A stretch of DNA of 37,912 nt from Candidatus Sungiibacteriota bacterium. Its GTDB lineage: Bacteria; Patescibacteriota; Minisyncoccia; Sungbacterales; HO2-52-23. The notes under the pieces are model-generated. The model worked only from the letters and a program-made list of their open reading frames with translations. It had not been told where the DNA came from and did no database searches. The stretch lies in NCBI GenBank assembly GCA_016181585.1, contig JACOYX010000002.1, positions 1 to 37,912 on the forward strand, given 5' to 3'. Each line of letters opens with the position of its first letter. Position 1 is the first letter of the stretch. Positions 1 to 26,837 of the stretch are shown here, in pieces. The position numbers and the translations under genes are program-made.

Positions 1-1
1 A

Positions 2-115
2 TACTTTTACATTCACATCCCTGCCAATGATAAGCCAAGAAATTTTGAAGCGATTTTGTCGCGAATTGAAATTGCAGCAGAATTATCTTTAATCAGCGGG
101 TCTACACTGTTTTAG
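2..115 (+). CDS. C-terminal fragment of an unidentified protein entering from the left edge (…YFYIHIPANDKPRNFEAILSRIEIAAELSLISGSTLF*)
   Basis: Open frame from the window edge to TAG at 113-115; not in the ORF track because it has no start codon. Confidence 0.35.
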   Translation, partial: YFYIHIPANDKPRNFEAILSRIEIAAELSLISGSTLF

Positions 116-1556: not shown

Positions 1557-1716
1557 AGACCTGTCCCCTAATAACAATTCTACTGCAATTCCAGAATTTT
1601 GGCTGCGACTCGATAAAAGTTTCTCGACATATACGCCGTATATGCCTCAAAACTTTTATCGTCGTCTCGCCTAAAATTCCGAAATTTCGTAACGAAAGTT
1701 ATTAGGGGACAGGTCT
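1557..1716 (+). mobile_element. Structured repeat element, copy A (160 bp, complete)
   Basis: 19-bp perfect terminal IR AGACCTGTCCCCTAATAAC/GTTATTAGGGGACAGGTCT; TTCTACTGCAATT and TTTCGTAACGAAA internal boxes; ACT direct repeats at 1554-1556 and 1717-1719. Confidence 0.7.
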
Positions 1717-11199: not shown

Positions 11200-11300
11200 A
11201 GACCTGCTGCTTAATTATTTTTCTACTGCAATCTTCATATTTTGGCTGTGGCTTTGCAAAAATTTCTCAACATATACCGCTTATATATGCTTCAAAAACG
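11200..11300 (+). mobile_element. Structured repeat element, copy B (right arm missing)
   Basis: AGACCT at 11200, TTCTACTGCAAT at the same 21-nt offset as A and C, then TATTTTGGCTG...AATTTCTCAACATATACC...TTCAAAAA aligning with A; CTT precedes it at 11197-11199. Confidence 0.55.
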
Positions 11301-12285: not shown

Positions 12286-12645
12286 CTAAAACTTAAGTTC
12301 TCCTTTTCGCGCACCTTCTGCGACCGCTCTTACAATACCGTGATAGTCATACCCGCCCCGGTCAAATACCACCGATGAAATTCCTTGTTCTTTTGCCTTT
12401 TTTGCGAGCAATGCCCCCAACGCTTCGCCGCGTTTCATTTTTGAATCTTTCTTTTTTGCGGCGCCAAGCTCCGAATCGCGCATGGCGACAATCGTTTTTC
12501 TTGCGGTATCGTCAATAATCTGAAGTTCAATATGCTTATTTGAACGAAATACGGAAAGCCGCGGACGATCTTTGGTGCCGATTATTTTAGCGCGGATTCT
12601 TTTATGCCGCCGGATTTTTAATTGTTGTTTTTTGATTTGATTCAT
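12286..12645 (-). CDS. rplR: 50S ribosomal protein L18
   Basis: RIRAKIIGTKDRPRLSVFRSNKHIELQIIDD, VVFDRGGYDYHGIVRAVAEGARKGELKF; true start MNQIKK. Confidence 0.95.
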   Translation of the reverse strand: MNQIKKQQLKIRRHKRIRAKIIGTKDRPRLSVFRSNKHIELQIIDDTARKTIVAMRDSELGAAKKKDSKMKRGEALGALLAKKAKEQGISSVVFDRGGYDYHGIVRAVAEGARKGELKF

Positions 12646-12801
12646 ATTCGCTTCGCTCAAATGTAAAATGTAAATGCTTGTTCCGTGCTACGATACGGGA
12701 CCAAAATGGAAAGTGATGCACCGGCGTCATCCCGAGGGCTTGTGCCCGAAGGATCTCCTTGTTATTTCGTGGGATCCTTCAGTCACTTCGTTCCTTCAGG
12801 A
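12642..12801. repeat. 160-bp direct repeat, copy 1
   Basis: Differs from 13325-13484 by one base (gggaccaaaa / gggactaaaa). Confidence 0.9.
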
Positions 12802-13328
12802 GCCTTCTTTCCTGCCTTTCGGCGAATCACTTCACCGCGATACCGGATTCCTTTTCCTTTATACGGTTCCGGCGGACGCAATCTCCGCACTTGCGCGGCT
12901 GTATCTCCCACAAGCTCTTTATCGATACCGTTCACCGTGATCGAATTTTTTTCAACTAAAAATTTTATTCCTTGGGGAGCCCTAAAGCGCACCGGATGAG
13001 AAAAACCAAGCTGTAAGACAAGGGTATCCCCTTCGACATTTGCGCGATACCCCACCCCCTCAAAATCAAGTTTTTTTTCAAAGCCGGAAGTAACTCCGGA
13101 AATCATGTTTGCAATAAGCGAGCGGGTAAGCCCCCACAATGCGGATGTTTTTTTGGATTCTTTTCGCGGTATTACCGACAAAAACCCTTCTTCCGATTTA
13201 AGACCCATAAAGGGATGAAAGACGCGAGTAAGCTCCCCTTTCGGCCCCTTTACGGAAACTTCAAATTCCGTGAACGTTATGTTCACTCCAGAAGGCACAG
13301 CAATTGGTTTTTTTCCAATACGACTCAT
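12783..13328 (-). CDS. rplF: 50S ribosomal protein L6
   Basis: MSRIGKKPIAVPSGVNITF, PEPYKGKGIRYRGEVIRRKAGKK. Confidence 0.95.
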   Translation of the reverse strand: MSRIGKKPIAVPSGVNITFTEFEVSVKGPKGELTRVFHPFMGLKSEEGFLSVIPRKESKKTSALWGLTRSLIANMISGVTSGFEKKLDFEGVGYRANVEGDTLVLQLGFSHPVRFRAPQGIKFLVEKNSITVNGIDKELVGDTAAQVRRLRPPEPYKGKGIRYRGEVIRRKAGKKAPEGTK

Positions 13329-13484
13329 ATTCGCTTCGCTCAAATGTAAAATGTAAATGCTTGTTCCGTGCTACGATACGGGACTAAAATGGAAAGTGAT
13401 GCACCGGCGTCATCCCGAGGGCTTGTGCCCGAAGGATCTCCTTGTTATTTCGTGGGATCCTTCAGTCACTTCGTTCCTTCAGGA
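13325..13484. repeat. 160-bp direct repeat, copy 2
   Basis: See 12642-12801. Confidence 0.9.
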
Positions 13485-13513: not shown

Positions 13514-13897
13514 TTACCATATCTCCGCGATTAATTCTCCTCCTACTTTTTCTTTCCTTGCTTCATCGCTTGCCAACACACCCTTTGGTGTAGAGACAAA
13601 CAATACGCCGCCGCGAGGTGAAACCTGCAATTCTTTATACGACATATATAATCGTCGGCTCGGTTTGGAAATCAGCCGTACATCGTGCATGAGAGGATCT
13701 CCTTCCCGGTACTGCAAAACCAGCTCAAGTGTTTTCTTTATTCGTTTCCCTTTCCGTTCAACGCCTCCTATATACCCCTTTCGCTCAAGAGCTTTTGCAA
13801 TTTCGTGCTTATATTTTGAATAAGGAAATTGCACGGTCTCATGGCCGGCGCGTTGCGCGTTTTTTATTCGTATAAACATATCTGAAATTGGATCCAT
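13514..13897 (-). CDS. rpsH: 30S ribosomal protein S8
   Basis: DPISDMFIRIKNAQRAGHETV, RRLYMSYKELQVSPRGGVLFVSTPKGVLASDEAR. Confidence 0.95.
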   Translation of the reverse strand: MDPISDMFIRIKNAQRAGHETVQFPYSKYKHEIAKALERKGYIGGVERKGKRIKKTLELVLQYREGDPLMHDVRLISKPSRRLYMSYKELQVSPRGGVLFVSTPKGVLASDEARKEKVGGELIAEIW

Positions 13898-20993: not shown

Positions 20994-21428
20994 CTATTTT
21001 TTTGCCTCTACTTTTTTCAGGCGAGCATCGTGGTCAAGCAGTGTATCGGAAATTCGTCCATGGAGAGCGGTATGCGCCGCTTCTTCCTTCTCTTTCGCAT
21101 CAAAGCTGGTAGCAAGTTTATCAAAAGCCTGAAGTATTGTTATTGTTTCATTTTTCATCTTCTCCGTAATTTTGATTTCGAAGTCTTCAAAGTTTATGGC
21201 CATTTCTTTCCGAACTGCCCTAAACCCCGTATCCATTTCTTCGCGCACCGCAGCAAACCCCGTATCCATTTCTTTCCGAACTGCCCTAAACCCCGTATCC
21301 ATTTCTTCGCGCACCGCAGCAAACCCCGTATCCATTTCTTTCCGAACTGCGGTAAGACCTGAATCCATCTCGCTCCGAACTGCGTTAAATTCCTGCTGTG
21401 TTACCAAGGCAAGCTTATCAATAGTCAT
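20994..21428 (-). CDS. Coiled-coil protein with 11-residue tandem repeats, inserted in the S10 operon
   Basis: (MDTGFAAVREE)(MDTGFRAVRKE) repeated; start MTIDKLALVTQQEF. Confidence 0.75.
   Translation of the reverse strand: MTIDKLALVTQQEFNAVRSEMDSGLTAVRKEMDTGFAAVREEMDTGFRAVRKEMDTGFAAVREEMDTGFRAVRKEMAINFEDFEIKITEKMKNETITILQAFDKLATSFDAKEKEEAAHTALHGRISDTLLDHDARLKKVEAKK
21201..21380. repeat. 33-nt tandem repeats with 66-nt higher-order periodicity inside the coiled-coil ORF
   Basis: Repeated ccatttctttccgaactgccctaaaccccgtat / ccatttcttcgcgcaccgcagcaaaccccgtat. Confidence 0.9.
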
Positions 21429-21467
21429 TTTTGTATGTTTCCTACTTTTTCTCATAATAAACATACA

Positions 21468-26186: not shown

Positions 26187-26625
26187 TTATCTATAAATAT
26201 CGTGCGTACCAGTGTTCACATACATCACAGTACTATCGTCCATAAAATAAAAATGTACTCGATACTGTTCGTTAACCGAGTACGCCTAAGTATCTTAGAC
26301 CTACTGCGCAAAGATACTTCTACTGCAATTTCTTAATTTAGGCCAAAATCGTTGAATAAATTTCTTGGCTTATCTAAGCCGATAGGCCTCGAAATTTATT
26401 CAACGATTTTGTCTCTAAATTAAGAAGTTTCGTTACGAAAATCTTTACGCAGTAGGTCTCTTTTAATTCACCACCTAGTTTGTGCGTTTTCAACGATGGA
26501 TGAAATGCATCCTGACGAAACATCTTATCTTTTTTCTTCGCAAGTTTTTGAATGCGTCCATGCAACCGATTGAGCTCTCGCCCAAATCGCGGAGAAAGAA
26601 AGATGCGATCAATCGGACGAATCAT
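26187..26625 (-). pseudogene. RelE-like toxin gene split by structured element copy C
   Basis: 5' part (26463-26625) MIRPIDRIFLSPRFGRELNRLHGRIQKLAKKKDKMFRQDAFHPSLKTHKLGGELK; 3' part (26187-26290) AYSVNEQYRVHFYFMDDSTVMYVNTGTHDIYR* on the far side of the element. Confidence 0.8.
26297..26459 (+). mobile_element. Structured repeat element, copy C (163 bp, complete)
   Basis: AGACCTACTGCGCAAAGAT / ATCTTTACGCAGTAGGTCT; TTCTACTGCAATT and TTTCGTTACGAAA boxes; CTT direct repeats at 26294-26296 and 26460-26462. Confidence 0.78.
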
Positions 26626-26837
26626 GATTTTATAACTTCTCCGAGATCAGATATGAACCGCGCTTTGCCTTGTTTCCATGCCTTACGCGCCTCCCGTATG
26701 GCATCTTTTGCATCTTTAATCTCCCATTTTTGGCGCAGTTTTTTTTCAAATTCTTTCGGGTCCACTGCAATAAGCCGACGAACTCTGCTACGGCCTGACA
26801 GTATTTTCTTTGGAATCGTAATGGTGATAATTTCCAT
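26622..26837 (-). CDS. Antitoxin partner of the RelE-like toxin
   Basis: MEIITITIPKKILSGRSRVRRLIAVDPKEFEKKLRQK...ARKAWKQGKARFISDLGEVIKS; stop overlaps the toxin start. Confidence 0.6.
   Translation of the reverse strand: MEIITITIPKKILSGRSRVRRLIAVDPKEFEKKLRQKWEIKDAKDAIREARKAWKQGKARFISDLGEVIKS

What the first reader, a model, noticed from the sequence alone, without database searches (positions are those of the whole stretch)
26187..26625. Copy C interrupts a RelE-like toxin gene, and the reading frame is recovered on removal
The ORF 26374-26625 begins as a RelE-like toxin but its last ~27 residues are translated from element C. Directly beyond the element, the minus strand encodes AYSVNEQYRVHFYFMDDSTVMYVNTGTHDIYR*, a typical RelE-family C-terminus that the ORF track lacks. 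Removing C plus one CTT joins GGT GAA TTA AAA GAT ACT TAG GCG TAC TCG = GELKDT*AYSV in frame. The only blemish is TAG, one substitution from TGG (GELKDTWAYSV). This supports both insertion and the 3-bp duplication, and suggests later decay. The antitoxin gene (26622-26837) appears intact.
Basis: partly seen in the sequence, partly recalled or inferred. Interest (0 to 1): 0.8.

Follow-up and report, generated by a model that had tools for sequence, protein, structure and literature searches.

The report
Hairpin mobile element breaks toxin gene
A 163-base hairpin-shaped jumping element, one of about 40 in this tiny bacterial genome, landed in and broke the toxin gene of a toxin-antitoxin pair; related bacteria still carry the unbroken gene, and the element belongs to a family spread across the Patescibacteria with a strikingly conserved folded core.

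Summary
Element C (26297-26459, 163 bp) sits inside a RelE-like toxin gene on the minus strand. Three relatives of the same GTDB family carry the uninterrupted gene between rpsG and fusA. Aligned separately, the two flanks meet in each relative with an exact 3-base overlap (AAG), so insertion with a 3-bp target duplication is shown, not inferred. The element supplies residues 56-83 of the 83-aa ORF. The displaced 3' part carries a stop where the relatives have tryptophan. The antitoxin is full length. C is one of roughly 40 whole or partial copies in an 867-kb genome. Over 86 copies sampled, 48 have exact 3-bp duplications, mostly ANT. The same ends (AGACCTNNTGCNNAATAAC) and 3-bp duplications flank IS5-type transposase genes in other Patescibacteria, including one in the same family, so C is best read as an IS5-type MITE. 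No such transposase was found in the host assembly (86% complete). The unexpected part is the core: across 33 diverged elements it keeps a folded palindrome with 25 of 40 pairs showing double-sided changes, while the unpaired boxes keep their sequence. The gene disruption itself is ordinary; the structure-conserved core deserves follow-up.

The parts
26460..26625 (-). 5' part of the RelE-like toxin gene (native residues 1-55)
   Evidence: aligns end to end with the intact gene of G010, G007 and G008; 54-aa piece is 67% identical to the G007 toxin
26297..26459 (.). element C: 163-bp palindromic MITE, AGACCTACTGCG...CGCAGTAGGTCT
   Evidence: blastn finds ~40 places in the own genome; empty site in three relatives; terminal stems and boxes
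26460..26462 (.). target-site duplication copy 1 (CTT; AAG on the coding strand)
   Evidence: 3-nt overlap of the two flanks in all three relatives
26294..26296 (.). target-site duplication copy 2 (CTT)
26187..26296 (-). displaced 3' remnant of the toxin gene, with one in-frame stop at a conserved tryptophan column
   Evidence: aligns with the 3' part of the intact genes of G007 and G008 up to their stop codons, and with G010 until that gene diverges
26374..26625 (-). chimeric ORF: native residues 1-55 plus 28 residues read from the element; matches no family
26622..26837 (-). antitoxin gene, 71 aa, apparently intact
   Evidence: full-length alignment with three relatives
26318..26330 (+). left box TTCTACTGCAATT of element C
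   Evidence: near-invariant across 33 elements apart from one R position
26428..26440 (+). right box TTTCGTTACGAAA of element C
   Evidence: near-invariant across 33 elements apart from two variable positions
1557..1716 (.). copy A: same family, different terminal stem (AGACCTGTCCCC...), duplication ACT/ACT
11200..11295 (+). copy B: half element (left arm plus centre) at the 3' end of rplO; right limit approximate
1..103 (-). further copy, cut off by the start of the window

Best explanation
Element C is a non-autonomous miniature inverted-repeat element (MITE). An IS5-type DDE transposase acting in trans recognised its AGACCT-ended inverted repeats, cut the target with a 3-base stagger (AAG on the coding strand, at codons 55-56 of a RelE-like toxin gene) and inserted the element; gap repair duplicated AAG. 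The insertion removes the C-terminal part of the toxin (about 35 of 90 residues) and replaces it with 28 residues read from the element, so the toxin is almost certainly inactive. The antitoxin gene upstream is left alone, and the orphaned 3' part carries a stop. Shown: insertion, 3-bp duplication, family membership, shared ends with IS5-type elements elsewhere. Inferred: which transposase did it, loss of toxicity, and the order of insertion and stop.
For: Empty site in three relatives with an exact 3-nt flank overlap. 80 blastn matches in the own genome, reducing to roughly 40 places. 86 copies: 48 exact 3-bp duplications against 1-9 in shifted controls, 37 of the 48 of form ANT. An ANT duplication is called consistent with bacterial IS5 transposons in PMC4482050. 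IS5-type elements with the same ends: L274 (1057 bp, TAT/TAT), L277 (1055 bp, AAT/AAT, 18/18 terminal match), L280 (1028 bp, ATT/ATT), and one split over two contigs in G010, same family (ATA/ATA). The L274, L277 and G010 proteins pass the Pfam cut-off for DDE_Tnp_4: 91.6, 77.2 and 48.9 bits against 24.8.
Against: No IS5-type transposase was found in the host assembly nor in two other element-rich genomes (G003, G009); it may lie in missing parts, be lost, or the partner may be something else. The inner boxes of the element were not seen in the IS5-type ends inspected. NCBIfam IS5 models match below their cut-off (66.1 against 140). No transposition has been observed.
Confidence: 0.87

Rival explanations
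1. The element is moved by a REP-associated (Y1, RAYT) transposase that recognises the hairpin as single-stranded DNA.
For: Y1_Tnp genes occur in five of six genomes tested, four of them in the host; the element is a palindrome with conserved inner loops.
Against: Most Y1 genes are flanked by their own, different hairpins; no element lies within the Y1 loci; G009 has 9 pattern matches for the element but no Y1 match; a fixed 3-bp duplication is not expected of Y1 enzymes (established knowledge).
Confidence: 0.05
2. The two gene halves were never one gene, or the arrangement is an assembly artefact at a repeat.
For: Copies of this element do break contigs in this assembly (several copies at contig ends).
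Against: Both flanks match the same gene in the same rpsG-fusA interval in three relatives, with a 3-nt overlap; a chance misjoin would not give this.
Confidence: 0.03
3. The element is a protein-coding palindrome of the Rickettsia (RPE) kind, inserted in frame and tolerated in a working protein.
For: It adds 28 residues in frame to the toxin N-terminus; RPEs are palindromes of 105-146 bp found in genes (PMC2229807).
Against: The ORF stops inside the element, so the toxin's conserved C-terminal part is lost; the chimera matches no family; most other copies lie between genes or at gene ends.
Confidence: 0.03

Closest known systems
Bacterial MITEs derived from IS5-family insertion sequences
   Same: short, no coding capacity, terminal inverted repeats shared with IS5-type elements, 3-bp ANT target duplications, many copies
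   Different: core of about 120 bp keeps a covarying folded structure and fixed boxes across many candidate phyla while the terminal stem sequence changes; the boxes were not seen in the IS5-type ends inspected
YPAL / RU-2 of Yersinia (about 168 bp palindromic element)
   Same: length, palindromy, many copies, makes target duplications (PMC2229807)
   Different: YPAL duplications vary from 3 to 26 bp and its inverted repeats are internal; here 3 bp fixed and terminal repeats
bcr1 of Bacillus cereus
   Same: short repeat known for a conserved fold and target duplication (from memory, not tested here)
   Different: different host group; no sequence comparison was made
REP / REPIN elements with RAYT transposases
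   Same: hairpin-forming repeats
   Different: no RAYT association, target duplications present
RelE/StbE, YafQ and HigB toxins (type II toxin-antitoxin)
   Same: weak matches of the intact relatives; small antitoxin gene directly upstream with 4-bp overlap
   Different: below every curated cut-off; the copy in this window is broken

Membership tests
MITE | short (< about 600 bp), no transposase gene | tested here: met
   163 bp; most full copies in the sample 147-187 bp
MITE | terminal inverted repeats | tested here: met
   terminal 16 bp of element C complementary but for one mismatch; mean 94.6% of cells paired in helix 1 over 33 elements
MITE | target-site duplication of fixed length | tested here: met
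   three empty sites; 48 of 86 copies exact at 3 bp against 1-9 in shifted controls
MITE | many copies | tested here: met
   about 40 places in the host; 32 pattern matches, none for the reversed control
MITE | ends shared with an autonomous element | tested here: met
   IS5-type elements L274, L277, L280 and the G010 copy share AGACCTNNTGCNNAATAAC-like ends, though none is in the host assembly
MITE | mobilised by that transposase | not testable with these tools
   needs a transposition assay
IS5 family (the proposed autonomous partner) | DDE_Tnp_4-type transposase | tested here: met
   PF13359 91.6, 77.2 and 48.9 bits, cut-off 24.8
IS5 family (the proposed autonomous partner) | NCBIfam IS5 equivalog cut-off | tested here: not met
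   66.1 against 140; 41.3 for the contig-cut copy; hence called IS5-type only
RelE/ParE superfamily toxin | profile match above curated cut-off | tested here: not met
   RelE_StbE 27.4 against 27.9 is the nearest
RelE/ParE superfamily toxin | cognate antitoxin gene next to it | tested here: met
   gene pair with 4-bp overlap in the window, and adjacent pairs in three relatives
RelE/ParE superfamily toxin | RelE fold | tested here: inconclusive
   AlphaFold2 model with two-sequence alignment has mean pLDDT 42.7; only an alpha-alpha-beta-beta-beta order is hinted
REP/RAYT system | elements flank or match the hairpins of a Y1 transposase gene | tested here: not met
Rickettsia palindromic element type | in-frame insertion leaving a complete host protein | tested here: not met
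   ORF ends inside the element

The most novel reading that the evidence does not exclude
The element family is a structure-selected DNA hairpin: transposition, or a host protein, reads the folded core and its conserved unpaired boxes rather than only the terminal repeats. This would let one core spread through many candidate phyla of Patescibacteria while exchanging terminal stems to match different IS5-type transposases.
Probability: 0.3. Interest if true: 0.75.

Novelty: new variant of a known kind. Interest (0 to 1): 0.5.

Why it matters
It gives a clean, three-relative empty-site proof of mobile-element inactivation of a toxin gene in an uncultured bacterium with a small genome, and identifies the element. 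More broadly, it brings to light an abundant MITE family across Patescibacteria; I found no description of one in the papers searched. Its core covaries like a structured nucleic acid, with G-T and A-C mismatches equally common, which points to constraint on DNA rather than RNA. Whether transposases or host factors recognise such folded DNA can be tested directly with these copies.

Tried and rejected
RAYT/Y1 transposase as partner: rejected. IS1595 (one genome only) and rve-type transposases (present in 5 of 12 genomes, absent from element-rich G009 and G044; the host rve gene L266 has an element nearby but is not flanked by these ends) rejected as partner. Rfam: nothing at gathering threshold; only weak plant-miRNA hairpin matches far below threshold, read as chance matches to a long hairpin. 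Viral contigs: 35 pattern matches, none with a convincing complementary mate. Long-range mates of lone left ends to find an autonomous copy in loci already held: only one far pair, whose ends belong to different elements. PDB sequence search for the toxin: no relevant match. Structure model of the intact relative too poor to use. Literature searches found no description of this family.

Full report
What was checked. The finding says that element C interrupts a RelE-like toxin gene on the minus strand at 26187-26625. The sequence agrees: the 83-aa ORF 26374-26625 consists of 55 native codons plus one base (26460-26625) followed by 28 residues read from the element. The element is 26297-26459, 163 bp, from AGACCTACTGCG to CGCAGTAGGTCT, with CTT on both sides.

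Empty sites. A search of 55 related genomes with the DNA of the toxin 5' part and antitoxin found three relatives in the same GTDB family, G010, G007 and G008. All three carry the toxin-antitoxin pair in the rpsG-fusA interval. The 5' flank ended at relative position 1806, 1811 and 1827, and the 3' flank began at 1804, 1809 and 1825. The overlap is 3 bases in every case, AAG on the coding strand. Scores of 91-196 compare with a maximum of 36 for shuffled flanks. This shows that the halves were contiguous and that 3 bp were duplicated. The stop in the 3' remnant lies at a column that is tryptophan in all three relatives. Whether the stop arose before or after the insertion cannot be told.

The gene pair. 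The intact toxin of G007 (90 aa) gives RelE_StbE 27.4 bits against a cut-off of 27.9, YafQ 21.9 against 30 and HigB-like 21.9 against 27; G008 is similar. It is therefore RelE-like at superfamily level but not a certified member. The chimeric ORF of the window matches nothing. The antitoxin is full length and 55-67% identical to those of the relatives.

The element family. Blastn with element C gave 80 matches in the own genome, which merge to roughly 40 places, many full length and several at contig ends. A two-box pattern occurs 32 times in the host, 13 in G003, 16 in G010, 9 in G009 and a few times in others, with almost no control matches. A scan of GTDB genomes with a mate test separated real elements (outer complementarity at least 15 of 20) from chance. 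All 47 real ones are in Patescibacteria or in unnamed bacterial bins, among them Sung-, Falkow-, Magasanik-, Doudna-, Jorgensen-, Lipton-, Staskawicz-, Azam-, Yanofsky-, Yonath- and Berkelbacteria.

Target duplications. Of 86 copies sampled, 48 have an exact 3-bp duplication, against 1-9 in shifted comparisons; 37 of the 48 are ANT. The sample still holds a few chance pairs (L004 170-353 and L027 1595-1848 are examples), which lower rather than raise the fraction. PMC4482050 states that an ANT duplication is consistent with bacterial IS5 transposons.

Transposase. PF01609 led to a G010 contig in which AGACCTTTTGCACAATAAC lies just upstream of an IS5-type transposase ORF. The other half is on another contig with the right end; both flanks read ATA. 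A search of 384 genomes of the class found more: L274 is 1057 bp with TAT/TAT, L277 is 1055 bp with AAT/AAT and 18 of 18 terminal bases matching, and L280 is 1028 bp with ATT/ATT and a decayed gene. DDE_Tnp_4 is passed clearly by L274 and L277. The host assembly has no such gene, but it is only 86% complete. RAYT, IS1595 and rve enzymes do not fit.

Structure. An alignment of 33 diverged elements gave a consensus fold of 40 pairs, 25 of them with changes on both sides. Against the controls, 93.9% of cells pair (79.2% shuffled; 32-49% when slid), and the covariation score is 0.413 (0.142 shuffled, 0.08-0.09 slid). The consensus structure was derived from the same alignment, which favours it somewhat, but the slid controls are far below. 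The inner helices 4 and 5, which lie beyond the terminal repeats, covary as strongly as the ends. Inside the conserved boxes one pair covaries (A-T 19, G-C 11). G-T and A-C mismatches are equally common (28 against 32), the opposite of what an RNA constraint on this strand would give. Matching of the terminal stems could come simply from both ends binding one transposase, and arm-to-arm copying can also make palindromes. The persistence of non-complementary positions in the boxes between covarying stems is what favours selection on a folded DNA core; I give that 0.3.

Position of copies. Among 26 host copies examined, most lie between genes or at gene ends; three ORFs end 15 bases inside an element. 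An insertion well inside a gene, as here, is unusual and fits a dispensable gene.

Noticed in passing
L092:1003-1053, L093:980-1030, L094:1055-1105, L096:599-649, L103 around 2013; L095:1002-1041; L111:1010-1044: Mini copies of 51 bp (and 35-40 bp): near-perfect palindromes made of the terminal stem around the right box; most carry 3-bp duplications. Unusually short for a transposable element.
   Followed up: partly
window 11200-11295; L020, L023, L027, L032, L033 (1400 on): Many solo half elements end just past the central loop of the palindrome, as if deletions start at the hairpin centre; copy B also holds the stop codon of rplO.
   Followed up: partly
L011, L012, L034: ORFs of the host end 15 bases inside an element in the frame AGA CCT ACT GCG TAA, so the element end supplies a stop codon.
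   Followed up: partly
L047:1641-2222 (G010): In G010 the toxin gene has lost its last residues and its frame runs into the start of fusA; an independent decay of the same gene, or an assembly fault.
   Followed up: partly
L025:1450-1629 and window 1-103: A variant with an unrelated segment (TTTACATTCACCTCCCTGCCAATGATAAGCC or close to it) in the centre occurs at both places.
   Followed up: no
window 12624-12801 and 13307-13484: A 178-bp repeat, 96% identical, in the gene starts and spacers of neighbouring ribosomal protein genes; a third shorter copy lies at 13887.
   Followed up: no
window 21167-21389: 33-bp tandem repeats inside ORF 20994-21464 (repeated TGFAAVREEMD units).
   Followed up: no
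L082, L086, L090, L091 (host genome): Four Y1 (RAYT-like) genes with their own short hairpin repeats in the flanks, unrelated to element C.
   Followed up: partly
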